A stretch of 61,699 nt of DNA, taken from positions 1 through 61,699 of the IMG/VR virus record IMGVR_UViG_3300020141_000500, one strand, 5' to 3'. Each line of letters starts with the position of its first letter. Position 1 is the first letter of the stretch. The notes beneath the pieces are model-generated. The model saw nothing but the letters and a program-made list of their open reading frames with translations, made no database searches and was not told the origin of the DNA. A program made the position numbers and the translations under genes. This document shows, piece by piece, positions 12,455-55,062 of the stretch. Source of the stretch: a virus.

Positions 12455-13705
12455 ATGAATGATTTAATATTTGTACAAATTGCGTCGTATCGTGATCCAG
12501 AGCTTGTTCCTACAATAAAGGACATGATCTCCAAATCAAAATATCCAGAGAAACTGACCTTTGGTGTTTGCTGGCAAAAAGATGATACAGAAAATATGGA
12601 CGAGTTTCTTAATAACCCAGCATTCAGAATAGAAGCGTATGATTATACTCAAAGCCAAGGATTGGGGTGGGCAAGAAACATCACCAACAAGTTGTATCGT
12701 GGTGAAAAGTATACATTGCAAATAGATAGCCATCATCGTTTTGTACAAGATTGGGATGTTTTGGTGCTCGAAGATTATGCACAGGCTTTGACCATGTGCA
12801 AAAAGCCAATCATCAGTACATATTGTACCCCGTTTGATACTCACGAGCCTGTGGAAAAAGCAAGTCAAGTTCCTTCATTAATGTCTCAATATGAGTTCAG
12901 CAATGACAAGCTTTTGATGAGTATGCCACATTACATTGGTGATCACAAAATTCGCAACAAAGTTATTCGCGCTCGTACACTCAGCGGACACTTCTATTTT
13001 GTTGAGGGAAAGTTCATTGAAGAAGTTCCATACGATCCAAACATTTACTTTGGTGGATATACTGAAGAAACAACTATGAGTGTTCGTGCGTTTACTCATG
13101 GGTATGATTTCTTTAGCCCATATCGTATGATCATGTGGCACGAATATACTCGTAAGTATCGTCCAAAACACTGGGATGATCACGGTAAAGAAAGTGCCAC
13201 CAAGAAGACCAGTGGAGAACGAGATGTGTATGCTCGCAACAAGACTCGTCAGATGTTTGGACAAGAGGAGCATAATATTGAAATGGGAATTTATGGTCTT
13301 GGAACTGAACGCACACTGCATGACTATGAAGTGTATGGTGGATTTAATTTCAAAAAATGTTTGATTCAAGATTACACATTGTTGGTAAAAGAAGCGCCCA
13401 ACCCACCCGATTGGGAAGAACAGTTCAAAAAGCTAAAAGTCAAAATGAATGTGGCATGGGATGTTGGACATTTTATATCGGAAGATATCGGAGATTTTGA
13501 ATTCATTACTCTCGGAGTTGTTGACAAGTATGATACAAATTTGTATCGTGTTGATTTTAAACCAGTGACACATCCAGAAATTTTTCAATACAAAAAAAGT
13601 TCGTTGGATATTAATATAATATCGGACAACAAACCCGAAAAGCTAATTATGTATTCATTTAGCAAATCTAAACAGTGGGGTCAACGCTATGAAAAGAAAC
13701 TATGA
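12455..13705 (+). CDS. GlcNAc-type glycosyltransferase (Skp1 Gnt1-like family)
   Basis: This 416-residue GT-A protein opens with IFVQIASYRDPELVPTIKDM, the hallmark of the Glycosyltransferase (GlcNAc) family (Pfam PF11397) that includes the Dictyostelium enzyme adding GlcNAc to hydroxyproline of Skp1. The metal-binding motif is LQIDSHHRF (residues about 88-96), followed by WD. Further family-like blocks are SGHFYFVEGKF, VPYDPNIYFGGYTEE, MSVRAFTHGYDFFSP and a Trp-His-Glu-Tyr. It is the first gene of a three-gene operon and overlaps the next by ATGA (13702-13705). Expected activity is sugar transfer from a UDP donor, plausibly to protein; the acceptor is not identified by sequence. Confidence 0.85.
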   Translation: MNDLIFVQIASYRDPELVPTIKDMISKSKYPEKLTFGVCWQKDDTENMDEFLNNPAFRIEAYDYTQSQGLGWARNITNKLYRGEKYTLQIDSHHRFVQDWDVLVLEDYAQALTMCKKPIISTYCTPFDTHEPVEKASQVPSLMSQYEFSNDKLLMSMPHYIGDHKIRNKVIRARTLSGHFYFVEGKFIEEVPYDPNIYFGGYTEETTMSVRAFTHGYDFFSPYRMIMWHEYTRKYRPKHWDDHGKESATKKTSGERDVYARNKTRQMFGQEEHNIEMGIYGLGTERTLHDYEVYGGFNFKKCLIQDYTLLVKEAPNPPDWEEQFKKLKVKMNVAWDVGHFISEDIGDFEFITLGVVDKYDTNLYRVDFKPVTHPEIFQYKKSSLDINIISDNKPEKLIMYSFSKSKQWGQRYEKKL

Positions 13706-15555
13706 GAATCGCATTCATTGTTGTTGGAAACGTTGAGAGGGGAGGTCTAATCAACGGGGAGAGTATAAGATATGGCGGAACCAGTGCATCTGGAACGGAT
13801 TCAAGTGCCATATTGGTTGCGGAATATCTATCAAAAGTTGGACATGATGTTGTGTTTGCGGTTGAAGGTGTCACCGATTTTGGAATCTGCCGTGGAGTCA
13901 AATATACCAACTTGAAGTTTGACACGGTTGATAATAAGGAGTTTGATGTTCTAGTCAGTTGCCTGTGGTTTGACAAGTATAACGATTTAAACATAAAAGT
14001 TACAAAATCTTTGATTTATTGGTGCCATTTGGCTTGGATGTATGGTATTAAAGAAATGACGGAATATGCAAAAGAAAATAATCTGCATCTTGGAATTGTT
14101 CATGTATCTGAATGGGAGAAGAAACACAACAACCAAACAATTGAGGTCATGCGCAGAGACTATAAAAATATCAGTCAAATTACTATTCCAAATTCAATTT
14201 GTGTGGATGTTGTTGAGGAAATATTGAAAGAGAAAATACAAAAGAAGTCAAAAAAAACCATCTTTCACGCACAGTGGTCAAGAGGCGGACCAACCGCACT
14301 TGAGATTGTAAAACGTCTTGGTTGGGATGAGTCCAATTTCACTTCATTTGATTATTTAAATACCGCCGGTGGTCGGGTAGATAAAAAACAATTGTTCCGA
14401 GAGTTGGCGGAAAGTGAATATTTTATATTTCCAAGTTTCACGCACGGACGGCTTGTTTACAAGGACACTTTTTCTTGTGCTGTCGCAGAAGCACTTGCGA
14501 TGGGAGTTATTGTCGTGGCATATCCATTGGGGGCTTTACCAGAATACTACAACAACTATTGCGAGTGGGTCGATTTTCCGGTTGGAACGGATTTGGAAAA
14601 AATTAAGTCCGAGAAGGTGTCAGAACTTCCGGCGATGGGAAATACGGATAATATGACGGATGCTGTTAACCGGATGGAAATGAACTTGGAAAAAAAGAAG
14701 GCACTTTCATCTAACGGCAATTCCATCATAAATTCTTTTAACATAAAAAAAATAGGTCCGATCTGGGAAATGTATCTGAAAAATCCCACCGTTCCAAAAA
14801 AAGATCATAGGTTCTTTGAACTCAAACCTTTCATTGGAGCATCTTCTCTGTCCGTTGTTGAAAAAATAGTATATATAAACTTGGATTCAAGAAAAGATCG
14901 ATTTGAACAAGCTCAAACTGAATTTCGTAAATACAATATAACAGCGGAGAGATTTCCGGCAGTTTGTATGAGCATAGAAGAGAGCAACGAAATAACGAGA
15001 AATGGTGGGGCGACATGGGACATCAATGTGTTAAAAATGGCACAGGATGAATTGGAAAGAAAACTCAGAGCACAGCGGTCTTGTACAAAATCTCACATAG
15101 AAATAATAAAAAAAGCCAAAAAAGATGGAACCAGAAACATTTTGATATTTGAAGATGATGTTATTTTCAATGACGAAATTGATTTAAATTTTGAGTTGAG
15201 AAACTGTTTATCGGAGTTGCAAGAAAAACAGTGGGATTTGTTTGTTCTTGGGTGCAATCCCAGAACTCCATTCAAACTGGATGGAAAATATTTGGCAAAA
15301 CTTGGTGGATTTTATAATGCACATGCCGTTCTAGTGAATAATACTGCATATGATGAAATTATAAAATTTCCATTTAATACTCACATAGTAATTGACCAGT
15401 TCTATTTTGGAATGTCGATTGAAAATCGCTTCAAAGTTTATACCCCTAAAATTCCACTGGCATATCAACGAGACAGTTTTTCCGATATCGAAGGTCGTAC
15501 CTACGAAACAAAATATATTCAGAAAGACGCTTATAAAACTTTTCTCACAACATGA
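13702..15555 (+). CDS. Bifunctional GT-B / GT25 glycosyltransferase fusion (617 aa)
   Basis: Residues 1-355 are a GT-B type glycosyltransferase (N-terminal GGTSASGTDSSAILVAEYLS; later SEYFIFPSFTHG, AVAEALAMGVIVVAYPLGALPEYY, matching the GT4 donor-site region). Residues about 385-617 are a GT25 domain: VYINLDSRKDRFEQA, then R.PAV, SCTKSHIEIIKKAKK, LIFEDDVIFND (EDDV metal motif) and GGFYNAHAVLVNN. GT25 includes bacterial lipopolysaccharide galactosyltransferases and animal collagen galactosyltransferases. The fusion would carry out two successive transfers. Both ends overlap neighbouring genes by ATGA, indicating one operon. The adjacent UDP-galactopyranose mutase suggests galactofuranose may be one donor sugar. 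Confidence 0.88.
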   Translation: MRIAFIVVGNVERGGLINGESIRYGGTSASGTDSSAILVAEYLSKVGHDVVFAVEGVTDFGICRGVKYTNLKFDTVDNKEFDVLVSCLWFDKYNDLNIKVTKSLIYWCHLAWMYGIKEMTEYAKENNLHLGIVHVSEWEKKHNNQTIEVMRRDYKNISQITIPNSICVDVVEEILKEKIQKKSKKTIFHAQWSRGGPTALEIVKRLGWDESNFTSFDYLNTAGGRVDKKQLFRELAESEYFIFPSFTHGRLVYKDTFSCAVAEALAMGVIVVAYPLGALPEYYNNYCEWVDFPVGTDLEKIKSEKVSELPAMGNTDNMTDAVNRMEMNLEKKKALSSNGNSIINSFNIKKIGPIWEMYLKNPTVPKKDHRFFELKPFIGASSLSVVEKIVYINLDSRKDRFEQAQTEFRKYNITAERFPAVCMSIEESNEITRNGGATWDINVLKMAQDELERKLRAQRSCTKSHIEIIKKAKKDGTRNILIFEDDVIFNDEIDLNFELRNCLSELQEKQWDLFVLGCNPRTPFKLDGKYLAKLGGFYNAHAVLVNNTAYDEIIKFPFNTHIVIDQFYFGMSIENRFKVYTPKIPLAYQRDSFSDIEGRTYETKYIQKDAYKTFLTT

Positions 15556-16667
15556 GCTATGATTATCTTATAGTAGGTGCCGGATTCTTTGGTGCGATTT
15601 GTGCTTACGAACTTAATAAAATAGGCAAGAAAGTTATTGTTATAGATTCTCGTGATCATGTTGGAGGAAATTGTTATACAGAAAACAGAGACAACATAAA
15701 TCTTCATGTATATGGTCCGCACATTTTTCATACATCAAACGAAGAAGTGTGGAAGTGGATAAATCAGTTTGCCACATTCAACAACTTTGTATATACCCCC
15801 GTCGCAAACTATAAAGAAAAATTATATGCTCTTCCATTCAACATGTGGACGTTTTATCAAATGTGGGGAGCAACTTCGGAAATAGAAGTAAAAGAAATTA
15901 TTGAAAAACAATCATCTGTTATAACAGGCGAGCCGAAAAATCTTGAAGAGCAAGCAATCAAACTTGTTGGACATGATGTATACAACACACTTATTAAAGG
16001 TTACACAGAAAAACAATGGAGAAAATCGGCCAAAGAACTTCCTAAAGAAATTATAAAACGACTACCTGTTCGTTATACATTTGATAATAATTATTTCAAT
16101 GATAAGTATCAAGGTATACCCGTTGGTGGATATACAAAAATATTTGAGAAGTTGCTTGAAGGCATTGAAGTAAGATTAAACACGGATTATTTTACAGCGG
16201 AACTACCAGAACACATCAAAGTTATTTATACTGGTCCTATTGACAAATATTTTGGTTATAAGCACGGCAAACTTGAATATAAAACTGTTGAACTTGATCA
16301 TATGAAAATAAACACTTCAAACTATCAAGGCGTTGCTGTGATAAATCACACAGATAAAGATGTGCCTCACACTCGTACCATAGAACACAAACACTTCGAG
16401 AAATCGGACAGCCCAGTTTCTTGGGTTAGCTGGGAAACTCCGGTTGAATATATTCCAGAAAAAACTGAACCATATTATCCAGTGAATGATGCCAAGAATA
16501 CAGAAATATATAACAAGTATAAAGCAGATGCTTTACTTGAAGATAAAGTTATTTTTGGTGGAAGACTTGGTGAATATAAATACTATGACATGCACCAAGT
16601 AATTGCCAGTGCATTGGAGTGTGCCAAACAATTGACATATCTCAATACGTGGCATCCAAACTTATAA
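15552..16667 (+). CDS. glf: UDP-galactopyranose mutase
   Basis: A 371-residue flavoenzyme interconverting UDP-galactopyranose and UDP-galactofuranose. The FAD site is YLIVGAGFFGAICAYEL at the N-terminus, followed by DHVGGNCYT and YGPHIFHTS, all classical Glf motifs. LIKGYTEKQW, FDNNYFNDKYQGIPVGGYTK and the C-terminal GRLGEYKYYDMHQVI are also family blocks. The length matches bacterial enzymes (about 370-390). Translation is coupled to the upstream glycosyltransferase by an ATGA overlap. The gene supplies the galactofuranose donor, so one of the phage transferases probably uses it; this is inference from linkage. Confidence 0.96.
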   Translation: MSYDYLIVGAGFFGAICAYELNKIGKKVIVIDSRDHVGGNCYTENRDNINLHVYGPHIFHTSNEEVWKWINQFATFNNFVYTPVANYKEKLYALPFNMWTFYQMWGATSEIEVKEIIEKQSSVITGEPKNLEEQAIKLVGHDVYNTLIKGYTEKQWRKSAKELPKEIIKRLPVRYTFDNNYFNDKYQGIPVGGYTKIFEKLLEGIEVRLNTDYFTAELPEHIKVIYTGPIDKYFGYKHGKLEYKTVELDHMKINTSNYQGVAVINHTDKDVPHTRTIEHKHFEKSDSPVSWVSWETPVEYIPEKTEPYYPVNDAKNTEIYNKYKADALLEDKVIFGGRLGEYKYYDMHQVIASALECAKQLTYLNTWHPNL

Positions 16668-16797
16668 TTGATATATTTTATTGAGACATGTAGTCTCATG
16701 CATGTGACAAAATGATACACATAAAATATGTATTTTTTATTTGTTACGAGGTAAGAGTGTGACATTACATTTGGCACGAAACATGATAATGTGTATG

Positions 16798-16823
16798 TGC
16801 CGATGTTCATAATGAAGTCGGCA
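16798..16823 (+). promoter_or_regulatory. Stem-loop in the hsp20 leader
   Basis: tgccga (16798-16803) pairs with tcggca (16818-16823) around a 14-base loop, just upstream of an aaagga Shine-Dalgarno and the hsp20 ATG. Small heat-shock genes are often controlled by RNA thermometers, but the hairpin does not obviously cover the ribosome site, so that role is only a possibility. The rest of the 177-base gap (16668-16844) shows no gene. Confidence 0.3.
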
Positions 16824-16844
16824 TAAATAAAGGATACAATAAAT

Positions 16845-17291
16845 ATGTCACTAACTAAATACACACGGGATGAGTTTCTCACCCCTTTTGATAGATTGTT
16901 TGATGAAGTTTTCAATAACTTCGGAGTAACACCATATGCTGGTTCATATACAAAAACCAGTTTTCCCAAAGTGGATGTGGTTGAATATATAGATAAACTT
17001 GTTCTAGAAGCAGATGTTGCTGGACTAGACAAGGAAGATGTAAGTGTTGAACTAGAAGGCGATACTCTCACCATTCGTGGTGGAAAGAAGCCAGCATCAA
17101 CTGAAACAGACAATAATGCTCGTTATGTTTATAGAGAAATAAAGCGTTCAAGTTTTGTTCGCTCTTTTGCTGTTGGCGAGGGTATTGATAAAAGTAACAT
17201 AAAGGTTGATTATCAAAATGGAGCAATCAAGATTATATTACCCAGAATTAAGATTGAAGAACAAAAGCCACAAAAAATCAAGTTGCTATAA
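16845..17291 (+). CDS. hsp20: Small heat-shock protein (Hsp20/alpha-crystallin)
   Basis: A 148-residue Hsp20 chaperone. The N-terminal LTPFDRLFDEVFNNFG is followed by an alpha-crystallin domain (about residues 40-135): PKVDVVEYIDKLVLEADVAG, VSVELEGDTLTIRGGKK, REIKRSSFVRSFAVGEGID and NGAIKIILPR, the A-x-x-x-n-GvL equivalent. The length is normal. It is an ATP-independent holdase found in many aquatic T4-like phages, where it may help virion assembly. A good aaagga sequence lies 12 bases before ATG 16845. It appears to be monocistronic: a gap of 177 bases precedes it and a non-coding stretch with a promoter and terminator follows. Confidence 0.95.
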   Translation: MSLTKYTRDEFLTPFDRLFDEVFNNFGVTPYAGSYTKTSFPKVDVVEYIDKLVLEADVAGLDKEDVSVELEGDTLTIRGGKKPASTETDNNARYVYREIKRSSFVRSFAVGEGIDKSNIKVDYQNGAIKIILPRIKIEEQKPQKIKLL

Positions 17292-17299
17292 GATAAATG

Positions 17300-17440
17300 T
17301 TGACAATTGATATATCTTCATACAATATATCAGTCTTAAAGGTTATATAAAGTTCCAATTCTTATGATAATTGGATGGTGGAGGGTGATGTTGAGTTCAA
17401 CCACCCCTAATTAAGCCCCACAGAAATGTGGGGTTTTTTG
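17300..17440 (+). ncRNA. Candidate small RNA with own promoter and terminator
   Basis: The 201-base gap after hsp20 has TTGACA at 17300-17305 and tacaat at 17321 (15-base spacing, short of the ideal 17), and ends at the GNRA-loop terminator at 17416-17440. Between them is no convincing gene, only a 16-codon frame from ATG 17364. The segment has a gttgagttcaac hairpin and flanking ggtgg/ccacc pairing. It could be a small RNA of about 100 bases, or simply an hsp20 trailer followed by its terminator. Confidence 0.35.
17416..17440 (+). terminator. Rho-independent terminator
   Basis: ccccaca/tgtgggg stem (17416-17422, 17427-17433) with a GAAA tetraloop and a T6 tail. It ends the hsp20 or small-RNA transcript and abuts the 99-bp repeat. 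Confidence 0.93.
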
Positions 17441-17528
17441 TTTTTTTCTATGAGTTGTATATATTTATTGTTATAACTTTATACAAAAATATATGAAAAA
17501 ATCAGAATTAAAGCAGTTGATTAGAGAA
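17430..17528 (+). repeat. 99-bp direct repeat, copy 1 (terminator tail, promoter box, leader, N-terminal tag)
   Basis: Identical to 18221-18319 except for one base. It spans the 3' half of a terminator, the T tract, the ATATTTAT box, the leader, the start codon and the first 12 codons of the 17493 gene. Confidence 0.95.
17461..17468 (+). promoter_or_regulatory. ATATTTAT box (candidate late promoter)
   Basis: An exact ATATTTAT, 24 bases before ATG 17493 and immediately after a terminator, so a new transcript must begin close by. This makes it one of the best-supported boxes. Confidence 0.55.
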
Positions 17529-18170: not shown

Positions 18171-18201
18171 TAACTTAATATAACACACATATTACACAAA
18201 G

Positions 18202-18230
18202 AACCCCAAACATAAAGTTTGGGGTTTTTT
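18202..18230 (+). terminator. Rho-independent terminator
   Basis: aaccccaaac/gtttggggtt stem with an ataaa loop and T6 tail, after the 17493 gene. The same hairpin recurs at 18937. Confidence 0.95.
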
Positions 18231-18319
18231 GTTTTTTTCTATGAGTTGTATATATTTATTGTTATAACTTTATACAAAAATATATGAAAAAATCGGAATT
18301 AAAGCAGTTGATTAGAGAA
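18221..18319 (+). repeat. 99-bp direct repeat, copy 2
   Basis: The second copy of the 17430-17528 repeat, 791 bases downstream. It supplies the promoter box, leader, start codon and N-terminal tag of the 18284 gene. Confidence 0.95.
18252..18259 (+). promoter_or_regulatory. ATATTTAT box (candidate late promoter)
   Basis: An exact ATATTTAT, 24 bases before ATG 18284 and right behind a terminator, in the same arrangement as at 17461. Confidence 0.55.
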
Positions 18320-18883: not shown

Positions 18884-18936
18884 TTATTCTAATTAGTTAA
18901 ATTCAAAATCTAATAACATTATAGTACAATCAACAA

Positions 18937-18968
18937 AACCCCAAACATAAAGTTTGGGGTTTCTTTTT
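18937..18968 (+). terminator. Rho-independent terminator
   Basis: aaccccaaac/gtttggggtt stem with ataaa loop, identical to the terminator at 18202, followed by a T-rich tail. It closes the 18284 unit. Confidence 0.93.
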
Positions 18969-18984
18969 TATAGTATATACTATA
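18969..18984 (+). promoter_or_regulatory. 16-bp palindrome upstream of the membrane protein
   Basis: tatagtat/atactata is a perfect palindrome between the terminator and ATG 18995. Half of it resembles the arms of the inverted repeat at 6591/6619 (tatactat/atagtata). It may be an operator or promoter element, or chance in an AT-rich gap. Confidence 0.3.
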
Positions 18985-18994
18985 CTTATATACT

Positions 18995-20512
18995 ATGAAC
19001 TTTTTAGCATTTTTAGTATTATTGAGTGCAATAGCAATATCTGCATGCGGTGCATATTTTAGTATCGTTGGATTAAAGTTGTTGTTTGTTGGTGGCGGCA
19101 TATCCATTATAATAATGGGAATTGCTCTTGAAGTTGGCAAATTTATTACCGCTACGTTTTTAAAACAAAAATGGAATGATATAACTTTGTGGATGAAAAC
19201 ATATATGGTTTTAGCCACAATGATACTTATGCTCATAACATCAATAGGTATATATGGATATTTGAGTGCGGGATATACCGCCACTTCTATTGCTGTACAA
19301 GGCTATGAACATCAAATAGAAGCAAATATAACCAATATAAAAGATATTGAGAAAGAAATAGCGTCTTTGAAGACATCAACTTATAATGAAGCAGAAACAC
19401 GGTCTATCGAGGACAACAGAAAGAAAATAATTGAACAGCGTACTTTGCTTATAAATCAAAAGAATCAGCAAGCAGAAACTATAAGAAAATCAACTGATAC
19501 AAACAGAGATGCGTCGTCTGATATAATGTCGGCAAAACAAGCATTGGAATTATCTAAATCATCTACAGATTCTGATATTGGTAGAGAACTTGAACAAATC
19601 AAGCTGTATAATTCACGACTTGAGATATTGGACAAAGAAGTACAAAAATGGATAGACCAAGGAAGTGGAAACATGTTCAAAAAAGGTGGCTTGGATAAAG
19701 CCCGAGAAATCAAACAATCGCAGCAGAAAGAACGTGATGACATTGATGCTCAAATAAAATCTTCACAAGACAGAATGGAAAAACTTCGTCAGCAATATGC
19801 TGGTCAAGTAAAAGAATATAATGATCGTGTGGCAGCAATTGAATCTCGTAGCAGATCTCAAAGAAGTGAAATTGACGCTAATATAAAAAATACTGAAAAA
19901 GAAGCTGCCGAAATTGCTGCGTCTATAATAGCATACAACAAAGAAACAGATGAAAAGATTGTTGCATTAAACACCAAAAAAGGTGAAATGACTGAACAAA
20001 GTAAACAAAAGATAACCGAATATCAAAATAATATACAAACGTTGCGAGCACAAAATACCGAAACACAAGAAAAGATTGTTCATACAGATGTTGGTACATT
20101 CAAGTTTATTGCGAAAAGTCTAAACATTCCATTGGACGATGCAGTTAATTATTTTATTTGGGCAATTATTGGAGTGTTTGATCCATTGGCAATATGTTTA
20201 ATTTTGGCGTTTAATGCATTGATTAAAAAAGATGAAAAATCCGAAAATAAACAACAACCAAAGACTGTGACAGAGCCAGAACCAACATCAACGCCGACTC
20301 CGACTCCGACGCCGACACCAAATCCAACCCCGACTGCATCATCCGAACCATCATCCACGCTGGTCGTAGAAAATATTTTGGTACAAGAACCAATTGCAAT
20401 TGATGCTATATCATCAGAGTCAGTTGATATAGACATACCACACATAGCATCGCCGCCCAAAGCACCAACCGCTCCACACGGAATAAAAAGCGGAAAAGTG
20501 TCTCCAAGATAA
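18995..20512 (+). CDS. Membrane protein with long coiled coil and Thr-Pro tail (505 aa)
   Basis: Three hydrophobic segments lie in the first 95 residues (about 2-22, 27-47 and 69-91). A long coiled-coil region rich in Lys, Glu, Gln and Ser follows (about 100-365), then a fourth hydrophobic helix (FIWAIIGVFDPLAICLILAF, about 385-405). The remaining C-terminal tail contains a Thr-Pro run ([18 protein letters not shown]) like the linkers of the fibre proteins, then an acidic/hydrophobic region. The layout resembles DUF4407-type membrane/coil proteins, but that assignment is tentative. It is probably inserted in the host inner membrane. The Thr-Pro tail makes it another possible target of the sugar enzymes. 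Confidence 0.85.
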   Translation: MNFLAFLVLLSAIAISACGAYFSIVGLKLLFVGGGISIIIMGIALEVGKFITATFLKQKWNDITLWMKTYMVLATMILMLITSIGIYGYLSAGYTATSIAVQGYEHQIEANITNIKDIEKEIASLKTSTYNEAETRSIEDNRKKIIEQRTLLINQKNQQAETIRKSTDTNRDASSDIMSAKQALELSKSSTDSDIGRELEQIKLYNSRLEILDKEVQKWIDQGSGNMFKKGGLDKAREIKQSQQKERDDIDAQIKSSQDRMEKLRQQYAGQVKEYNDRVAAIESRSRSQRSEIDANIKNTEKEAAEIAASIIAYNKETDEKIVALNTKKGEMTEQSKQKITEYQNNIQTLRAQNTETQEKIVHTDVGTFKFIAKSLNIPLDDAVNYFIWAIIGVFDPLAICLILAFNALIKKDEKSENKQQPKTVTEPEPTSTPTPTPTPTPNPTPTASSEPSSTLVVENILVQEPIAIDAISSESVDIDIPHIASPPKAPTAPHGIKSGKVSPR

Positions 20513-21213: not shown

Positions 21214-21214
21214 T

Positions 21215-47847: not shown

Positions 47848-47856
47848 CTACCAAAG

Positions 47857-49809
47857 ATGAAAATTTTATATATAGCTCCGCATTTATCAACGGGTGGATG
47901 TCCACAATTTTTGTTTAAGAAGATACAGGTTTTACACAAAGACCATGAGATATATTGTATTGAATATGCAGACCACGGATGTTTCACAGTACAAAAGAAC
48001 AAAATAAAAGAAATTCTCAAAGACAGGTTGATTTCTGTGAATTATGATCGCTCAAAAATAGTTGATATAATCAAAGATTTGGACCCAGATGTGGTGCATC
48101 TGGAAGAAATGCCAGAATATTTCATGGACAATGACATTGCTAAAAAGATATACATCAAAGATAGACGATATAAAATCATTGAAACATCGCATGACAGCAG
48201 CTTTGATCCAAAAGGTAAAGTGTTCTTTCCAGACCGATTGATATATGTGAGCAAATATCAAAAAGAAAATCTCAAAGAAATTGATGTGCCATCCGAAGTT
48301 TGTGAATATCCTATTCTAATAAATCCAAGAAAGCCAAGAGAAGAAGCACTAAGAGTGTTGGGTCTTGATCCAAAGAAAAAGCATGTGATGCATGTTGGTT
48401 TGTTCACATCAAGAAAAAACCAAAAAGAAATTATTGAGTATGCCAGAATACTCAAAGACCAACCAATACAGTTCCATTTCATTGGAAATCAAGCGGACAA
48501 TTTTAGAAGCTATTGGGAACCATTGATGAAAAATTTTCCATCCAACTGCAAATGGTGGAATGAAAGAAAAGATGTAGATAATTTTTATCAAGCAGCCGAT
48601 TTGTTTCTGTTTGTGTCTAAGGATGAAAATGGAGACAAAGAAACAAGTCCATTGGTTATACGCGAAGCAATATCATACAATATACCAACGTTGATTTATA
48701 ATTCTCCTGTGTATATGGGAATGTATGACAAATATGAAAATATAAAATATCTTGATTATGATGACAAGGATGAAAATTTAAACAGAATACTAAAAACTCT
48801 AAATCTAACAGAACCAAAAAAAATGCACATATTTCAATCCAATTGGGACATGAACGAACAAAAGATGTACTACTCGGTGAATACCAATGTAGATTTTCCT
48901 ATAATAGTCGCGTTGAGAGAATACAAGTCCGACGCTGTGTTGTGGTCTACCACATACGAAACTTTTCCACCAAATTGCAATTTTTGGATGATTCCTGTCT
49001 CAAAGAGTAACCGAGATTACTCCACAGAAGAAACATTTTCTGGCATAAAGCTTTGCATATACAAAAAAGAAACGGGCGAACAGATTTACGAGCAACCATA
49101 TTTTTATAAATTTGCAAATGTTCCAACGGTCACTTTGAGCAATCGTGCTCCATACTATGATAACTATACAGAATTTTTTGTTCGCGACAAATACAAAGAA
49201 TGGTTGGGCAACAAGAAGTTTGATGTTGCGGTTGACGTTGGTGCAAATGTAGGCGTGTTTACGCGATATTTGATACACAATAAAATAGCAAAGAGGGTTG
49301 TGTCGGTTGAATGCGACTCCGCCGCTTTATTTGATTTGAAAAGAAACTACGAATTTAACGACAATGTGAAAATAATTGAAAAAGCATTAAGCGACACGAA
49401 CGATCCAATAACATTTTATCACTGCGAAGAAAATCCAATCGTAAGCAGCACAATTCCACCGGAAAAGCTAAAACAACACATGGCCGGTGTGAGGGGAAAT
49501 GTGAAAACCACGGTTGATGCTGTTACAATAAGGGATCTGGTTGATGAACTTGGTCAAATTGATTTGTTGAAGATTGACATCGAGGGAGGCGAATACAAAA
49601 TTATAGAAAAGTTGGAAACCAAGTTGTTTGACCATATAAATAACATATTCATTGAATGTCATTTTTTTGAGGAAGATTATAAAGAAAAGTATGTATCTCT
49701 ACTTGAAAAGTTGCGCAACAATGGATATGAAGTAAAAGAATATCTATCGAATCAGTCGAATAATGCCGGAACCAGTGAATGTATTTTTGCTACTAAAAAA
49801 TCTCAATAA
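47857..49809 (+). CDS. GT4 glycosyltransferase - FkbM methyltransferase fusion (650 aa)
   Basis: Residues 1-310 are a GT-B (GT4-type) glycosyltransferase: ILYIAPHLSTGGCPQFLFKK, HLEEMPEYF, HVGLFTSRKNQKEIIEYARI, and the donor-site region DLFLFVSKDENGDKETSPLV with IREAISYNIPTLIYNS. Residues about 455-645 are an FkbM-family SAM-dependent methyltransferase (VAVDVGANVGVFTRYLI; VVSVECDSAALFDLKRNYEF; LLKIDIEGGEYKIIEKL). The linker between them (about 330-440) is unassigned. The fusion could add a sugar and then O-methylate it. It is the first gene of the second sugar island. Confidence 0.88.
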   Translation: MKILYIAPHLSTGGCPQFLFKKIQVLHKDHEIYCIEYADHGCFTVQKNKIKEILKDRLISVNYDRSKIVDIIKDLDPDVVHLEEMPEYFMDNDIAKKIYIKDRRYKIIETSHDSSFDPKGKVFFPDRLIYVSKYQKENLKEIDVPSEVCEYPILINPRKPREEALRVLGLDPKKKHVMHVGLFTSRKNQKEIIEYARILKDQPIQFHFIGNQADNFRSYWEPLMKNFPSNCKWWNERKDVDNFYQAADLFLFVSKDENGDKETSPLVIREAISYNIPTLIYNSPVYMGMYDKYENIKYLDYDDKDENLNRILKTLNLTEPKKMHIFQSNWDMNEQKMYYSVNTNVDFPIIVALREYKSDAVLWSTTYETFPPNCNFWMIPVSKSNRDYSTEETFSGIKLCIYKKETGEQIYEQPYFYKFANVPTVTLSNRAPYYDNYTEFFVRDKYKEWLGNKKFDVAVDVGANVGVFTRYLIHNKIAKRVVSVECDSAALFDLKRNYEFNDNVKIIEKALSDTNDPITFYHCEENPIVSSTIPPEKLKQHMAGVRGNVKTTVDAVTIRDLVDELGQIDLLKIDIEGGEYKIIEKLETKLFDHINNIFIECHFFEEDYKEKYVSLLEKLRNNGYEVKEYLSNQSNNAGTSECIFATKKSQ

Positions 49810-49842
49810 TAAAATCTCAATAATAAAATCTCAATAATAAAA
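49801..49842 (+). repeat. 14-bp tandem repeat (three copies)
   Basis: tctcaataataaaa occurs three times head to tail, running from the last codons of the 47857 gene across its stop to the start of the 49846 gene. Copy-number change would alter the spacing between the genes without affecting either protein much. Confidence 0.92.
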
Positions 49843-49845
49843 TCT

Positions 49846-50664
49846 ATGGTTATATTTTTATATAGCGACAAAAACTGCGAACATCAAGCAATGGCTTGCA
49901 TCAAATCATTAACTCACAAAATTACAGATGATGTAAAGATTGTATACTATACAATCGGATTCGACAGCAGGTTTGAATTCAAGAACTTAAACAAAGTTCG
50001 TATTGAATACAAACCACAATATCCAACATTTCATTTTTATAAAGCCGAGCTGTCTTTACTTACTATGCAGATGTTTCCCAATGATTATTATCTATTTACA
50101 GACACCGACGTATTGTTCTCACGAAACTTCAACTTCAACGACCATAAATATAACGAGTCATATCCCATGGCAAGTTATGGTCCACATGAATATCCATTCA
50201 TTTGGCAAGAAGTAAACGGCGTTAAGATTATTTTTAATGAAAAGAAACTAATGACATACCACGGTGTAGCCGACAGAAGTATGAGATACTGCTGGTCTTG
50301 CTTTTTTGCATTTAATCCAAACTGCAAAGAGTTTTTTGAAGAATATACTTCAATTTGTCAGAACAAATATTTGCTTGATCGCCGCAAAGATTATTTTCCA
50401 TATGCCGACGAAACTGCATTTAATGTATGCTTGTGGAAGCGCGGGGCCACTAAGAATCTAAAACAAGGATTTGTAAACACACATTCACTAGAAACGGTAA
50501 AAATTGTGGAAGAAAGAAAAGCAAAAAATAAAGTGTTTATGAACAGTGTAGACGCATTTGGTTCAAGTTGGGAAGCCGTTGAAGATCCAGATAAAGTATT
50601 GCTATATCACGGATTTAAAGAAAAAATAGAAATGGATAAGACCGTTGATTATCTGTTGGCATGA
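49846..50664 (+). CDS. GT-A-type glycosyltransferase (272 aa)
   Basis: A nucleotide-diphospho-sugar transferase fold is indicated by VIFLYSDKNCEHQAMACIKS at the start and YYLFTDTDVLFSRNF (residues about 83-97), where DTD acts as the DxD metal/donor motif. FAFNPNCKEFFEEY, DETAFNVCLWKRGATKN and LYHGFKE are typical of GT8/GT32-like proteins in their second half. The length is normal. It is probably cytoplasmic. It is expressed with the upstream fusion across the 14-bp repeat. The donor and acceptor are not predictable. Confidence 0.8.
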   Translation: MVIFLYSDKNCEHQAMACIKSLTHKITDDVKIVYYTIGFDSRFEFKNLNKVRIEYKPQYPTFHFYKAELSLLTMQMFPNDYYLFTDTDVLFSRNFNFNDHKYNESYPMASYGPHEYPFIWQEVNGVKIIFNEKKLMTYHGVADRSMRYCWSCFFAFNPNCKEFFEEYTSICQNKYLLDRRKDYFPYADETAFNVCLWKRGATKNLKQGFVNTHSLETVKIVEERKAKNKVFMNSVDAFGSSWEAVEDPDKVLLYHGFKEKIEMDKTVDYLLA

Positions 50665-50729
50665 AATTTAATAAAAATAAAATACTTGACCCAAAAAAAC
50701 GGAAGTTTTGCTAGATTGAAATAAAATAC

Positions 50730-50758
50730 TTGACATTGAGTAAAACTTTAAATATATA
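50730..50758 (+). promoter_or_regulatory. Sigma-70-type promoter, copy 1 of a duplicated element
   Basis: TTGACA (50730-50735), a 17-base spacer and TATATA (50753-50758). The surrounding sequence acttgacattgagtaaaact recurs at 52846. A degenerate third start, aaaatacttgacc, lies at 50681. The promoter drives the aminotransferase gene at 50790. Confidence 0.75.
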
Positions 50759-50789
50759 CACTGGGAAATCAAGTAAAAATGAAAATATT

Positions 50790-51419
50790 ATGGCAAACGG
50801 AATATACAGAATAACAGAAGAGTTTGAAGAAAAATTAGCAAAATACACAGGAGCACAATACGCTGTCACACTTGACAACGCTAGTAATGCCTTGTTTTTA
50901 TCGTTATATTACGAAAATATTAAAGGTTCTACTATAACCATACCCACCAGAACATACCCAAGTGTTCCATGCGAAATCATACATGCTGGCGGCAAGGTTG
51001 CATTTGAACCAGTTGAAGGTGGAACTATAAAGGGTGCATATCAATTGAAACCAACCAGAACATGGGATAGTGCATTAAGATTTACATCAAATATGTATAT
51101 TCCAAATACATTTATGTGTATTTCATTCACTGGGCCATATAAGCACTTCAAATTAAGTAAGGGTGGAGCTATTCTTACGGACGATCTTAAAGCATATCAT
51201 TGGTTCAAGCGTGCAAGATATAGCGGAAGACGTGAGTGTTCATATCACGACGACAATCTGGACATGCTTGGGTGGAACTTTTATATGATGCCGGAATTGG
51301 CCGCACGTGGTGTTCTTCTCATGAATCAATTTTATAATATGGATGGTACGCCAAAACAAAATGATGATTTGGAAATGCCATATCCGGACTTGTCAAAATT
51401 TGAAATATATAAACAATGA
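50790..51419 (+). CDS. Short DegT/DnrJ-type sugar aminotransferase (209 aa)
   Basis: The ATG at 50790 is chosen; a longer frame would start on the TTG of the -35 hexamer. YRITEEFEEKLAKYTGAQYA and VTLDNASNALFLSLYY are the N-terminal PLP-fold motifs of DegT/DnrJ/EryC1 proteins. SFTGPYKHFKLSKGGAILTD is the position of the PLP-binding lysine. The chain is about half the usual 370 residues and ends shortly after RARYSGRRE and ELAARGVLL, lacking the C-terminal domain. It is either a minimal phage form or a truncation. It would make an amino-sugar nucleotide, a fitting substrate for the acetyltransferase that overlaps it by ATGA. Confidence 0.82.
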   Translation: MANGIYRITEEFEEKLAKYTGAQYAVTLDNASNALFLSLYYENIKGSTITIPTRTYPSVPCEIIHAGGKVAFEPVEGGTIKGAYQLKPTRTWDSALRFTSNMYIPNTFMCISFTGPYKHFKLSKGGAILTDDLKAYHWFKRARYSGRRECSYHDDNLDMLGWNFYMMPELAARGVLLMNQFYNMDGTPKQNDDLEMPYPDLSKFEIYKQ

Positions 51420-51967
51420 TTCGAGGATTTTCAAATTACACAAGAGAGGAACTGATAAACTCACTTCTTTCTATCGGAGAAAACGTCTATATTTCAGACG
51501 ACGTTATATTACACAATCCACAAAACATAATTATTGGAAATAATGTTAGAATAGATTCTCAGTGTATATTGATTACAGGTAAAAATACTAAAATAAAAAT
51601 TGGAAACGACGTACATATTTCTGCCGGATGTTATTATTATGGAAATTCTGGAAATATCACACTCGAAGATTCTGTGTGTACGTCGGCTCGGTGTACATTA
51701 TATACCGCAAATGATGATTACACCGAAGGATATATGGCAAACTCTATGGCACCCAAAGAGTACAAGAAAGTAACCACCGGCGATATATTACTAAAAAAAT
51801 ATAGTCTCGTGGGATGTTATACTGTGATATTGCCAAATGTAACACTCGAACATGCCACGTCGGTTGGTGCTCACTCACTGGTAACAAAATCAACTATTCC
51901 ATTTGATATTATAGCAGGCGTTCCTGCGAAATTTATAAAGAAGAGAAAAAACGTATATCTAAATTAA
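51416..51967 (+). CDS. Hexapeptide-repeat acetyltransferase (183 aa)
   Basis: A left-handed beta-helix acyltransferase. The repeat pattern [IVL]-G-x-x is visible in NIIIGNNVRIDSQCILITGK, IKIGNDVHISAGCYYYGNSG and ILPNVTLEHATSVGAHSLVT, and the end IPFDIIAGVPAKFIKKR is the classical C-terminal motif of the WbbJ/galactoside-acetyltransferase group. The start is coupled to the aminotransferase by an ATGA overlap. Together the two genes suggest synthesis of an N-acetylated amino sugar, with O-acetylation of a glycan as the alternative. Confidence 0.9.
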   Translation: MIRGFSNYTREELINSLLSIGENVYISDDVILHNPQNIIIGNNVRIDSQCILITGKNTKIKIGNDVHISAGCYYYGNSGNITLEDSVCTSARCTLYTANDDYTEGYMANSMAPKEYKKVTTGDILLKKYSLVGCYTVILPNVTLEHATSVGAHSLVTKSTIPFDIIAGVPAKFIKKRKNVYLN

Positions 51968-51968
51968 T

Positions 51969-52925
51969 ATGAAAAAATGCGCAATTATACCATGTTTTAT
52001 AAGTAATCAATATCGGCGAGATTTGATAATCAGTCAGACTAAATTCTTCAACGATCTAAATATAGACGTAGTGTTGGTGTCATCGAATCATATAGAAAAA
52101 ATTGAAGGTGTTAAAAATTATATTACCATAAACCACGTGATTAATAAAAAGTATTTATCGGAGGGAATTTTTCCATATTGCTGTATTGATGGAATTAAAT
52201 ACTATTCGGGCACTGCTTATAGTAATATTTCCGCGTCAAACTTTTTCGTAAAATTATTTCAAGCTTCTTTTAATTATTGTAAAAATTTGGGTTATGATTT
52301 TTGTTATGTTCTTGATTTTGATAATATAATAAAAGAAAGCCACGTTGATGTCGCATTTGGCAAAAATTTAGACTATTCAAAAATTTATTTTTATGATTTG
52401 CAAAAATCAAATGAATATCAAGGTGCATTTTTTTATGGCAATTTGAATGTGTTGGTTGATATTTTTTCGGAAAAAAATCTAAACTATATAGAAAAATTAG
52501 CAACTGAAAAAAAGGTAATAACCAATGAACAAGTATTATTTGAAATATCGCAATATTATAATAAATTTATAATAGTATTAAAACATAAAGACTTTGAAAT
52601 ATTTTCAACGAGAAACATGTTTTCCAGTAGAAATGTTGCGGATATATTTTACGATGGAGAACGCAAAGAATATTGGTTTTTACAATATAAAGGAGATACC
52701 TGTGAAAACGAGTTTGCGTGTGAATTATTTTTGGACGATGTTCTTATATATTCCAACCACTTCAAACACACTAGATATTGGAGCTTGCGTAAATTGGAAA
52801 ATAATAAAAATTATAAAATAAAATATTATGACGCCGCGATATCTGACTTGACATTGAGTAAAACTATAAATATATACACTGATACAAGTACGGTTACTAC
52901 ATCAAACTGGATACAAAGAACTTAA
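51969..52925 (+). CDS. Putative GT-A-like protein of the second sugar island (318 aa)
   Basis: The N-terminus (KKCAIIPCFISNQYRRDLII; VVLVSSNH) and the central YDFCYVLDFDNIIKES suggest a nucleotide-sugar-transferase fold with DFDN in place of DxD. FKHTRYWSLRKLENNKNY and the end are unassigned. The last 30 codons overlap a copy of the duplicated promoter (52848-52876), so the C-terminal LTLSKTINIY is encoded by promoter sequence. The tail may therefore be a by-product of promoter insertion. The function is tentative. Confidence 0.65.
   Translation: MKKCAIIPCFISNQYRRDLIISQTKFFNDLNIDVVLVSSNHIEKIEGVKNYITINHVINKKYLSEGIFPYCCIDGIKYYSGTAYSNISASNFFVKLFQASFNYCKNLGYDFCYVLDFDNIIKESHVDVAFGKNLDYSKIYFYDLQKSNEYQGAFFYGNLNVLVDIFSEKNLNYIEKLATEKKVITNEQVLFEISQYYNKFIIVLKHKDFEIFSTRNMFSSRNVADIFYDGERKEYWFLQYKGDTCENEFACELFLDDVLIYSNHFKHTRYWSLRKLENNKNYKIKYYDAAISDLTLSKTINIYTDTSTVTTSNWIQRT
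52848..52876 (+). promoter_or_regulatory. Sigma-70-type promoter, copy 2 of the duplicated element
   Basis: TTGACA (52848-52853), 17-base spacer, TATATA (52871-52876), nearly identical to the promoter at 50730, but here inside the 3' end of the preceding gene. It drives the heptosyltransferase fusion at 52927. Confidence 0.75.
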
Positions 52926-52926
52926 A

Positions 52927-55062
52927 ATGAAAATAATCAATATCACGCCGGGACTTATATCAATTCCACCAAATGGGTGGGGTGCAATCGAAAAAATTAT
53001 TTGGGATTATCATCTTGAATTGAACAAGCTGAACATCCGTAATGAGATAAAATATCTCAATGATGTTAAATATGACGAAAGTATGGTTGTGCATGTACAC
53101 GTGGCTAATCTCGCCAATATGCTTCATGAACGCGGTGTTCCATACATCTTTAGCATTCATGATCATCATGCTTTTTTGTATGGTAAAGATTCTCATGTAT
53201 ATAAAGAAAATTTGAAAGCAATTGAAAATAGTGTGTTTTCTTTGTCACCATGTAAGTTTTTGATACCATATTTTGGAAGCAAAAAGTTGAGATATGTATC
53301 TCACGCCGTCAATACAGATGTATTTGCCTACAAAGCAAGAGAAATGAGCAGCAATCCAAAGTTGTTGTGCGTAGCCAACAATGGATATGCTAATGACCAA
53401 AACAAAGACCGTAAAGGGTTTGCTATTGCAATTCAAGCGGCTAAACAGTTGGGACTACCGCTTACGATTGCCGGTCCACGCAACAATGATAACTTCTTCA
53501 AAACACTTGATCCTGAACTCAACAACTATGAACAACTAACCAAGATATATGACTTGGATGAAAAGTCTCTCATTGAGTTGTATAACAGCCATGATATATT
53601 TTTACATTTCTCTGAACTAGAAGCCGGTCATCCAAATCTTACATTGTTGGAAGCAATGGCATGTGGTTTGCCCGTGGTTGGTACGTTTGAAGAACAAAAA
53701 TATAAAGGTATGGTTGTTACTTCGCGTGATATATCTGAAGCAATTCGTGGTATTGAAGATGTGAGATTAAATTATAAAGCATACAAAAATGCCGCGTTGG
53801 AAAATGCCAAAGAAAATTCATACAGCAACAGAGTACATGATTTGGCCAAACTATACAGCGAATATCGTGAATGTATTTTTGGTAATCAATTGATTGATAG
53901 TTACAAAAACACAGATGTGGTATACAAAGAGCCAAAGAAACCAGAAAACAAAATTAAAATAACTTTCGATGATGGTGCCAAGGTGGATATACCCGGCCCA
54001 GTTGACAAGAGTTATAAGATCAAGTTTATTGATTTTCACACAGGTCATGTTGTGTATGAAACCAAACTTAAAAATAACATGTGGGCATCAACTTCCACAA
54101 AGTATTTCAACAAGTGGGTGGTTGAGGTATATGACATATCAGATGGTTATGATGTATTGGTAGAAAAACACACATTTGATCCAAAAAACAAAAAAGTTAA
54201 AGTTGTGTTAGACAGCGAAAGCCTTGGGGATTTGTTGGCATGGATTGGTGCCGTCGATGAGTTTCAAAAGAAACATCAATGTATAATGGAATGTGCAGTG
54301 TTTAATAAAGTACTTCGTCCAATGTTTGAGAAGAATTATCCAAATATAAAATTCTTGGCTGTGGATGTGTATACAGATCCATATTATGCTAAATACAAGA
54401 TTGGCTGTTTTGATGGAGAAAATAGCAAGAATCATATTCCAACCGACCCAAGATTGCTCAATCTATGTTCTATTGCCACAACCATACTGGGTTTGACCAA
54501 CATAGAATACAAACCAAAGATTACTTTTGATGCCAATAAGTATAAAAATGTAAAGAAGAAGTATGTGTGTATTGCTACTCAAAGTACTTGTCAAGCAAAG
54601 TATTGGAACAACAAAACTGGATGGAAGACCGTGGTGGATTATCTAAAACGCAATGGATATGAAGTATGGTGTATTGACCGACACAATAGTTTTGGCGTAG
54701 ACAAAAGTATGAATTATATGCCAGAAGGTTGTGTAGATAAAACCGGCGACTTTACACTGGACGAACGCATGGCTCAAATAGCAGGAGCACAGTTCTTTAT
54801 TGGACTAAGTTCCGGTTTGAGTTGGTTGGCATGGGCCGTAGGCAAGCCCGTGGTGTTGATCAGTGGATTTACCAAGAGTCTGTGCGAGTTCCATACTGAA
54901 TATAGAGTGATCAATGAAAATGTGTGTAATGGCTGTTGGAACGATGTGTCCTGCAAGTTTAGTCGCAATGATTGGTTTTGGTGCCCAAGGAACAAAAACT
55001 TCGAATGTTCCAAGGAAATATCAGCCGACATGGTATTGAAACAAGTCAAAAAATTGATATAA
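52927..55062 (+). CDS. GT4 fused to TibC-like autotransporter O-heptosyltransferase (711 aa)
   Basis: Residues 1-310 are a GT4-type domain (IINITPGLISIPPNGWGAIE; ISHAVNTDVF-like VSHAVNTDVFAY; HFSELEAGHPNLTLLEAMAC). Residues about 340-711 match the bacterial autotransporter heptosyltransferase family (TibC/Aah, GT9-like). This part has the beta-domain lead (KIKFIDFHTGHVVYETKLKN ... KYFNKWVVEVYDI), SLGDLLAWIGAVDEFQKKHQ, GLSSGLSWLAWAVGKPVVLI, and a four-cysteine cluster C-x2-C-x15-C-x7-C (about 665-692; VCNGCW, FWCPRNKNFECSKEI), corresponding to the iron-finger motif of TibC. TibC-type enzymes transfer heptose to Ser of adhesin repeats. Here the likely targets would be phage adhesin-like proteins. 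Confidence 0.88.
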   Translation: MKIINITPGLISIPPNGWGAIEKIIWDYHLELNKLNIRNEIKYLNDVKYDESMVVHVHVANLANMLHERGVPYIFSIHDHHAFLYGKDSHVYKENLKAIENSVFSLSPCKFLIPYFGSKKLRYVSHAVNTDVFAYKAREMSSNPKLLCVANNGYANDQNKDRKGFAIAIQAAKQLGLPLTIAGPRNNDNFFKTLDPELNNYEQLTKIYDLDEKSLIELYNSHDIFLHFSELEAGHPNLTLLEAMACGLPVVGTFEEQKYKGMVVTSRDISEAIRGIEDVRLNYKAYKNAALENAKENSYSNRVHDLAKLYSEYRECIFGNQLIDSYKNTDVVYKEPKKPENKIKITFDDGAKVDIPGPVDKSYKIKFIDFHTGHVVYETKLKNNMWASTSTKYFNKWVVEVYDISDGYDVLVEKHTFDPKNKKVKVVLDSESLGDLLAWIGAVDEFQKKHQCIMECAVFNKVLRPMFEKNYPNIKFLAVDVYTDPYYAKYKIGCFDGENSKNHIPTDPRLLNLCSIATTILGLTNIEYKPKITFDANKYKNVKKKYVCIATQSTCQAKYWNNKTGWKTVVDYLKRNGYEVWCIDRHNSFGVDKSMNYMPEGCVDKTGDFTLDERMAQIAGAQFFIGLSSGLSWLAWAVGKPVVLISGFTKSLCEFHTEYRVINENVCNGCWNDVSCKFSRNDWFWCPRNKNFECSKEISADMVLKQVKKLI

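What the first reader, a model, noticed from the sequence alone, without database searches (positions are those of the whole stretch)
12455..55062. Candidate phage-encoded O-glycosylation system for Thr-Pro-rich virion proteins
Seen: at least five proteins (2, 3410, 5047, 9445, and the tail of 18995) carry long Thr-Pro/Thr-Ala runs of the kind that are glycosylated in other organisms. Two sugar islands encode transferases, a UDP-galactopyranose mutase, a sugar aminotransferase, an acetyltransferase and an FkbM methyltransferase. Known: three of the transferase families (TibC/Aah, Skp1-type GlcNAc transferase, GT25) include enzymes that modify protein. Inferred: the phage decorates its own adhesin linkers, perhaps with galactofuranose, amino sugar and heptose-type units, for stiffness, protease resistance or masking. 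The alternatives are modification of host surface glycans or of phage DNA.
Basis: partly seen in the sequence, partly recalled or inferred. Interest (0 to 1): 0.85.

Follow-up and report, generated by a model that had tools for sequence, protein, structure and literature searches.

The report
Phage cassette sugar-coating its fibre linkers
A lake phage carries, directly behind genes for adhesin-like proteins with Thr-Pro linkers, a gene for an enzyme built like the ones that start mucin sugar chains in animals, and the same pairing recurs in other phages and in some bacteria, so these phages probably sugar-coat their own fibre linkers.

Summary
In detail: four window proteins carry long Thr-Pro runs (a fifth a short one), and two sugar islands encode the named enzymes. 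Protein glycosylation is supported for island 1 only. Its first gene (12455-13705) is a GT60 (PF11397) enzyme whose model matches mucin-type polypeptide GalNAc-transferases best (Z 22.4; best other class 17.8). In 80 viral GT60 loci the gene directly upstream is Thr-Pro-rich in 28 of 73 evaluable cases, against 17 of 885 other genes there (p 9e-23). GT60 also travels with a GT4 (66/80) and a galactopyranose mutase (51/80). Among records of 100 kb or more, Thr-Pro runs occur in 12 of 14 with GT60 and 0 of 11 without. Cultured phage XacN1, whose ORF334 is a GT60, is reported to have glycoproteins. Island 2 holds a genuine TibC/Aah-type heptosyltransferase fused to a GT4, but it is not tied to Thr-Pro proteins (0 of 77 loci); its acceptor is unknown, a giant tail sheath being one candidate. 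Best reading: a viral counterpart of mucin-type O-glycosylation for adhesin linkers, plus a second, separate glycosylation enzyme. No glycan was measured.

The parts
2..439 (+). Thr-Pro protein, 5' end cut by the window edge; tract at residues 1-45
3410..4366 (+). Thr-Pro protein: short N-terminal module similar by eye to that of gene 5017, Thr-Pro linker, Cys-rich C-terminus
5017..6462 (+). Thr-Pro protein with three Thr-Pro tracts (ATG at 5047 is an alternative start)
9445..12093 (+). Main Thr-Pro adhesin-like protein (882 aa): N-terminal module, weak LamG-like match (below cut-off), Thr-Pro linkers about 10957-11217 and 11572-11925, Cys-containing tip; directly upstream of GT60
12455..13705 (+). 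GT60 (PF11397) polypeptide HexNAc-transferase-like enzyme, proposed initiator; residues D91, H93, E204, E205, H229 invariant in 33 of 33 aligned phage sequences
13702..15555 (+). GT4-GT25 fusion, proposed chain extender (GT25 at residues about 388-515); overlaps the GT60 stop codon
15552..16667 (+). UDP-galactopyranose mutase (TIGR00031, 395.8 bits against cut-off 303.75), proposed source of UDP-galactofuranose
18995..20512 (+). Conserved protein with hydrophobic and coiled-coil-like stretches and a short Thr-Pro tail; probably not a virion linker
47857..49809 (+). GT4 + FkbM methyltransferase (island 2); relatives recur near the TibC-like gene
49846..50664 (+). Putative glycosyltransferase by position and acidic motif only; no Pfam, NCBIfam or PHROG match
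50730..51419 (+). Short DegT-type sugar aminotransferase (229 aa)
51416..51967 (+). Hexapeptide-repeat sugar acyltransferase
51969..52925 (+). Unassigned protein of island 2 (possible glycosyltransferase; weak match to a PHROG of unknown function)
52927..55062 (+). GT4 (residues about 1-300) fused to a TibC/Aah-type protein O-heptosyltransferase (340-710); D435 and C667, C670, C686, C694 align with TibC D110 and its four iron-finger cysteines, invariant in 77 of 77 relatives

Best explanation
Island 1 (12455-16667) is a phage-encoded, mucin-type protein O-glycosylation cassette that acts on the phage's own Thr-Pro linkers. In the host cytosol late in infection, the GT60 enzyme would put HexNAc (most likely alpha-GlcNAc from host UDP-GlcNAc) on Thr of the linkers of the adhesin-like proteins encoded just upstream; the GT4-GT25 protein would extend it, in part with galactofuranose made by the phage's mutase. 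A sugar-dense linker would be stiff, protease-resistant and masked. Shown: gene identities, predicted fold, gene order, repeated linkage and co-occurrence. Inferred: that Thr is the acceptor, the sugars, the timing, that these proteins are in the virion, and the benefit. Island 2 carries a separate GT4-TibC/Aah enzyme that probably heptosylates (or otherwise glycosylates) a different protein, perhaps another virion protein.
For: GT60: PF11397 E 2.5e-60; model pLDDT 92.7; of the 50 entries shown by VIA-align, the first 29 are all polypeptide GalNAc-transferases (Z 22.4-18.7, 262-283 residues aligned) and the next is at Z 17.8 over 185 residues (the last of the 29 and the 30th are within 1 Z unit); Foldseek's first 40 rows are the same class. 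Linkage: upstream neighbour Thr-Pro-rich for 28 of 73 GT60 genes against 17 of 885 other genes in the same loci, Fisher p 9e-23; a Thr-Pro ORF within 3 kb upstream in 19 of 45 clusters at 85% identity. Thr-Pro ORFs in 39 of 80 GT60 loci, 3 of 76 terminase loci, 0 of 77 TibC-like loci. Reverse: of 84 loci fetched by a (TP)6 DNA pattern, 58 encode a Thr-Pro ORF; GT60 is in 8 loci, all among those 58. Whole records of 100 kb or more: 12 of 14 with GT60, 0 of 11 without, p 2e-5 (test). Cassette: GT4 66/80, mutase 51/80, GT11 35/80, GT25 33/80 in GT60 loci, all 0 in 77 TibC-like and 76 terminase loci. In the window and 50 relatives the mutase is in 3 records, all with GT60. Bacterial chromosomes: a Thr-Pro ORF in 12 of 80 GT60 loci, within about 1.1 kb of GT60 in 9 (either strand, no control measured). 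Literature: GT60 are protist polypeptide alpha-GlcNAc-transferases, and T. cruzi mucin glycans carry Galp and Galf (PMC8724618, PMC6939170, passages); [quoted passage not shown]
Against: No glycan, activity or virion protein was measured. 50 of 58 loci with a Thr-Pro ORF held no GT60 in the short stretch fetched. 45 of 73 evaluable GT60 genes have no Thr-Pro gene directly upstream. GT60 records G077 (136 kb) and G101 (122 kb) lack (TP)4. 68 of 80 bacterial GT60 loci show no Thr-Pro ORF. Only 3 of the 8 GT60 records near the window carry the mutase. The records are not independent, and those without GT60 come only from relatives of the window lineage and of phage immuto. The model of the 9445 protein failed (pLDDT 48), so virion location rests on gene position and module content. 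A profile of 33 phage GT60s finds no PDB chain by sequence. XacN1's authors saw no tail fibres and found no tail-fibre homologues, and the text does not name its Thr-Pro ORF325.
Confidence: 0.65

Rival explanations
1. Host-surface modification: the cassettes alter host LPS or capsule during infection (superinfection exclusion, serotype change), and the Thr-Pro proteins are unrelated neighbours.
For: GT4, GT25, GT9-type, GT11, galactopyranose mutase, DegT and acetyltransferase genes are common in LPS and capsule loci (recalled; several family names say so). The enzymes flanking GT60 vary between phages, as antigen-diversifying genes do.
Against: GT60 and TibC/Aah members are polypeptide-directed in the passages read, and the GT60 model matches polypeptide transferases best. 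GT60 sits behind Thr-Pro genes. No flippase, polymerase or initiating phosphoglycosyltransferase turned up among the island genes and the neighbour representatives scanned with Pfam; they were not searched for by name.
Confidence: 0.17
2. Island 1 modifies other parts of the same fibre proteins (globular Ser/Thr sites or hydroxyproline), and the Thr-Pro runs are only spacers.
For: The Skp1-type members of GT60 act in the Skp1 pathway (PMC6939170 and PMC8724618 passages; that the acceptor there is hydroxyproline is recalled). Several GT60 genes lie behind large genes without Thr-Pro runs.
Against: A prolyl-hydroxylase-type oxygenase (PF13640) is absent from the window and from most GT60 records tested: found in 4 of 17 GT60 records (one of them the weak match G101) and 1 of 11 records without GT60. 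Thr-Pro genes are over-represented next to GT60 in phages and recur beside it in bacteria.
Confidence: 0.12
3. Phage DNA modification by the glycosyltransferases.
For: Virus-encoded glycosyltransferases are known to modify DNA (stated in PMC12619734 and PMC5852040 passages).
Against: None of the matched families is a DNA glycosyltransferase family to my knowledge, and no base-hydroxylating enzyme showed up among the window genes scanned; the window is a fragment.
Confidence: 0.03

Closest known systems
Mucin-type O-glycosylation initiated by GT60 polypeptide alpha-GlcNAc-transferases in protists (Dictyostelium, Trypanosoma cruzi)
   Same: Same enzyme family (PF11397), Thr/Pro-rich candidate acceptors alongside, galactofuranose-making capacity alongside
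   Different: Prokaryotic virus, one operon-like cassette behind an adhesin-like gene; activity not shown
Animal polypeptide GalNAc-transferases (GT27)
   Same: Nearest solved fold (Z 22.4); D-x-H plus downstream acidic and His residues invariant (motif correspondence recalled)
   Different: 11-16% identity in those alignments; the C-terminal part (residues about 327-416) was barely covered by the alignments and not compared on its own
BAHT family (TibC, Aah)
   Same: TIGR04414 385 bits against cut-off 200; Asp at the TibC D110 position and four iron-finger Cys conserved in 77 of 77
   Different: Fused to an N-terminal GT4; phage-encoded; strand-loop-strand target repeats in 0 of 15 records, GmhA in 0 of 17
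Glycosylated mycobacteriophage virions (Che8 and relatives, Freeman et al. 2023)
   Same: Phage glycosyltransferases linked to glycans on virion proteins
   Different: Capsid and tail-tube C-termini rather than Thr-Pro linkers; known here only through citing papers
Xanthomonas phage XacN1 glycoproteins
   Same: Encodes a GT60 (ORF334) and a Thr-Pro-containing 3313-aa protein (ORF325) in the adjoining gene block, and glycoproteins were detected
   Different: Different phage lineage and companion enzymes; which proteins carry glycans was not seen here

Membership tests
GT60 / PF11397 polypeptide GlcNAc-transferase | Curated family score | tested here: met
   205.2 bits against cut-off 21
GT60 / PF11397 polypeptide GlcNAc-transferase | Metal/sugar-nucleotide D-x-H motif (motif recalled) | tested here: met
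   D91 and H93 invariant in 33 of 33 aligned phage sequences, window included
GT60 / PF11397 polypeptide GlcNAc-transferase | Fold like polypeptide HexNAc-transferases | tested here: met
   predicted model: Z 22.4, rmsd 3.4, 274 residues aligned to GalNAc-T2; pLDDT 92.7
GT60 / PF11397 polypeptide GlcNAc-transferase | Transfers GlcNAc to a polypeptide | not testable with these tools
   needs enzymology
BAHT (TibC/Aah) | TIGR04414 equivalog score | tested here: met
   385.3 bits against cut-off 200
BAHT (TibC/Aah) | Asp corresponding to TibC D110 (D110A was used for the ligand-bound structure; catalytic role recalled) | tested here: met
   D435 aligned, D in 77 of 77 relatives; D110A in PMC4358343 passages
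BAHT (TibC/Aah) | Four iron-finger cysteines (TibC C339, C342, C358, C370) | tested here: met
   C667, C670, C686, C694; 77 of 77
BAHT (TibC/Aah) | N-terminal beta-barrel domain | tested here: inconclusive
   TibC_1st 24.3 bits, below cut-off 27; covered by the TIGR04414 alignment
BAHT (TibC/Aah) | Autotransporter strand-loop-strand target repeats (TIGR04415) in the same genome | tested here: not met
   found in 0 of 15 records, most of them possible fragments; so the enzyme is filed by sequence, not as an autotransporter-glycosylation system
BAHT (TibC/Aah) | ADP-heptose donor | not testable with these tools
   GmhA found in 0 of 17 records; the host could supply the donor
UDP-galactopyranose mutase | TIGR00031 score | tested here: met
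   395.8 bits against cut-off 303.75
Mucin-type O-glycosylation | Dense Thr/Ser-Pro domains encoded beside the initiating transferase | tested here: met
   met in the window and in 28 of 73 GT60 genes against 17 of 885 others
Mucin-type O-glycosylation | O-glycans on those domains | not testable with these tools
   needs glycopeptide mass spectrometry

The most novel reading that the evidence does not exclude
Phages run their own mucin-type O-glycosylation: a GT60 transferase starts HexNAc-Thr on mucin-like Thr-Pro linkers of virion adhesins, a mobile GT4/GT25/GT11/mutase set builds galactofuranose- and fucose-containing chains, and the same GT60/Thr-Pro pairing in bacteria makes this a general prokaryotic counterpart of protist and animal mucin glycosylation; independently, a GT4-fused TibC enzyme glycosylates another virion protein such as the giant tail sheath.
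Probability: 0.4. Interest if true: 0.87.

Novelty: new variant of a known kind. Interest (0 to 1): 0.74.

Why it matters
Virion glycosylation in phages is known in a few cases. This would add an enzyme class known from protist mucins, a defined acceptor (Thr-Pro linkers), a recurrent gene cassette that can be searched for, and a simple test: co-express one enzyme and one linker. It would also suggest a role for the puzzling Thr-Pro runs in phage adhesins and give a candidate prokaryotic setting for the GT60 family.

Tried and rejected
Single system on one substrate: rejected, because the TibC-like enzyme shows no tie to Thr-Pro proteins. DNA-level satellite artefact: rejected, because Thr codons are mixed in 12 of 12 tracts and Pro codons in 10 of 12. 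Hydroxyproline route: unlikely, oxygenase mostly absent. TibC target repeats and GmhA: not found. Fold of the 9445 globular part: pLDDT 48, not used. Sequence search of the GT60 profile in PDB: no hit. Tblastn in INPHARED with the 9445 N-terminal part: no match. Paper searches: (held open-access library only). Of these, searches were aimed at Thr/Pro-rich, TibC-type or Skp1-type glycosylation in phages; one search listed nine papers, none on it by title, none, one (an algal virus, whose passages do not concern GT60). This is no proof of absence in print. Freeman et al. 2023 and Heise et al. 2009 are not held and are known only through other papers.

One search took 50 records, chosen for length, from the loci plus Mel-JY01 and immuto. 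One search took 42 of the 49 GT60 loci without an upstream Thr-Pro ORF, plus XacN1 and RAS14. One search took 21 of the 80 portal loci. In one search, 7 of the 80 GT60 genes had no gene within 600 bases upstream and were left out. In the 100-kb comparison, Thr-Pro was scored by DNA pattern, except one GT60 record (behind L210) scored by ORF. One search's neighbour lists include shadow ORFs. Mutase and GT25 counts differ between (49 and 42 loci, clustering, within 6 kb; 51 and 33, search, whole locus).
Full report
What the window is. The window is one linear virus record of 61,699 bases with no tRNA gene found. Its terminase is T4-like (Terminase_6N); the nearest annotated relatives by terminase are Microcystis phage Mel-JY01 (51% identity) and Flavobacterium phages immuto (50%). 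The genes I took from the ORF list all lie on the + strand.

The Thr-Pro proteins. Four ORFs pass a strict Thr-Pro test; 200 shuffles of the pooled window proteins give none. Thr codons are mixed in 12 of 12 tracts and Pro codons in 10 of 12, so most are held at protein level, with some recent array growth. By eye, gene 9445 has an N-terminal module, lectin-like and Ig/FN3-like stretches, two Thr-Pro linker regions and a Cys-containing tip; only a weak LamG-like match (20.0 bits, below the 27.6 cut-off) was found, and its AlphaFold model is poor. It follows PhoH and precedes GT60, an order repeated in relatives. In Stenotrophomonas phage RAS14 an annotated PhoH-type ATPase also precedes a gene with an in-frame (TP)4, with one small gene between. 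I treat these as adhesin-like virion proteins by inference only. The Thr-Pro tail of 18995 belongs to a conserved, apparently membrane-bound protein and is set aside.

Island 1. Gene 12455 matches PF11397 (E 2.5e-60), a family described as protist polypeptide alpha-GlcNAc-transferases, CAZy GT60 (PMC8724618 and PMC6939170, passages; that PF11397 corresponds to GT60 is recalled). Its model (pLDDT 92.7) matches polypeptide GalNAc-transferases before anything else: of 50 entries shown, the first 29, at Z 22.4-18.7, then Z 17.8 over a shorter stretch (Foldseek's first 40 rows agree). D91, H93, G201, E204, E205, W228, H229 and E230 are invariant in 33 of 33 aligned phage sequences. Gene 13702 fuses a GT4 and a GT25; 15552 is a galactopyranose mutase.

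Linkage of GT60 to Thr-Pro genes. In the best 80 of 406 viral GT60 candidates, 31 have a Thr-Pro ORF ending within 3 kb upstream. The directly upstream gene is Thr-Pro-rich for 28 of 73 GT60 genes (7 of 80 not evaluable) and for 17 of 885 other genes in the same loci (p 9e-23); after clustering GT60 at 85% identity, 19 of 45 clusters have a Thr-Pro ORF within 3 kb upstream. Thr-Pro ORFs occur in 39 of 80 GT60 loci, 3 of 76 terminase loci and 0 of 77 TibC-like loci. Starting from Thr-Pro DNA instead, 84 loci gave 58 with a Thr-Pro ORF; GT60 was found in 8 loci, all among those 58; 50 had none in the short stretch held.

Whole records. Among the window and 50 relatives, PF11397 is in 8. Seven of these have Thr-Pro coding just upstream of GT60 (six by ORF; G003 by DNA pattern) and the eighth, G045, has a TTPPG-repeat protein elsewhere. 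By DNA pattern the counts are 6 of 8 with GT60 and 3 of 43 without (the window counted). Of 44 further GT60 records, 42 of them chosen because no Thr-Pro ORF lay within 3 kb upstream, the other two being XacN1 and RAS14, 22 carry (TP)4 somewhere. For records of 100 kb or more, 12 of 14 with GT60 have Thr-Pro runs and 0 of 11 without GT60 (p 2e-5; data). The exceptions are G077 and G101. The set without GT60 consists of relatives of the window and of immuto, so lineage and habitat are confounded with GT60.

The cassette. In GT60 loci a gene like the GT4 half of 13702 is present in 66 of 80, usually overlapping the GT60 stop (median offset -3); a mutase is present in 51, GT11 (fucosyltransferase family) in 35, GT25 in 33, and none of these was found in the 77 TibC-like or 76 terminase loci. 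The fused GT4-GT25 of the window joins two genes that are separate in relatives. Near the window itself the mutase is in only 3 of the 8 GT60 records. In 80 bacterial GT60 loci the companions are almost absent (mutase 1 of 80), but a Thr-Pro ORF is present in 12, within about 1.1 kb of GT60 in 9, on either strand, among them Prosthecobacter, Jiulongibacter, Nostoc and a planctomycete; no control rate was measured there.

A cultured phage. XacN1 encodes a GT60 (ORF334, 34% identity over the full length), and its 3313-aa ORF325, which encodes in-frame (TP)4, lies between baseplate genes and the glycosyltransferase block. Its authors name ORF328 and ORF334 as glycosyltransferases, report at least two glycoproteins, and suggest that the phage enzymes may make them; they also saw no tail fibres, and ORF325 is not named in the text (PMC5852040, passages; the supplement was not seen). 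So the general idea is in print for that phage; the GT60/Thr-Pro link was not mentioned in the passages I saw.

Island 2. The C-terminal half of 52927 scores 385 bits on TIGR04414 (cut-off 200) and aligns with TibC over 366 residues. The residue aligned with TibC D110 and the four iron-finger cysteines are present in 77 of 77 relatives. It is fused to a GT4, and full-length relatives are widespread, including a 735-kb uncultured phage. TIGR04414 is in 45 of 51 records, a set largely selected by this gene, with no tie to Thr-Pro. In 25 of 77 loci an unusually long tail sheath gene (1,269-1,322 aa) follows, in 22 of them after 80-81 bases and in 3 after 2.3 kb; the one read through (L048) is rich in Ser, Gly and Thr, with its sheath domains at the C-terminal end. 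It is a candidate acceptor by position only. Target repeats and GmhA were not found. Its sugar and substrate are open.

Verdict. The proposal that the phage decorates its own Thr-Pro linkers is well supported by context and predicted fold for island 1 and unsupported for island 2. It is a new variant of a known kind (phage virion glycosylation), with enzymes that resemble mucin-type glycosylation. No sugar was detected; confidence 0.65.

Noticed in passing
L048:12225-16139 and 24 further TibC-like loci: Giant tail sheath gene (1,269-1,322 aa; in L048 the sheath domains match only about the last 300 residues) downstream of the GT4-TibC gene.
   Followed up: partly
window 54972-59024: Large protein with a weak RNA-ligase match and a weak adenylyl/cytidylyltransferase-like match, directly downstream of the TibC-like gene.
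   Followed up: partly
window 50730-51419: DegT-type aminotransferase of only 229 aa; its first residues resemble the C-terminus of gene 51969 (11 of 15 identical, E 0.18), perhaps a gene remnant.
   Followed up: partly
window 49797-49845: A 14-bp unit repeated 3.5 times exactly (AT-rich) at the end of gene 47857 and into the gap before 49846.
   Followed up: no
L403, L436, L398: Bacterial loci where a Thr-Pro ORF is flanked by two GT60 genes.
   Followed up: partly
L195 (record G045) 8493-10442; L148:16490-19300: A GT60 record without Thr-Pro ORFs near the gene but with a TTPPG-repeat protein elsewhere in the record.
   Followed up: partly
G025:C1:179758-180573 and G046:C1:26769-27602: Second, shorter TibC-like genes (211.8 bits each) in two records.
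   Followed up: no
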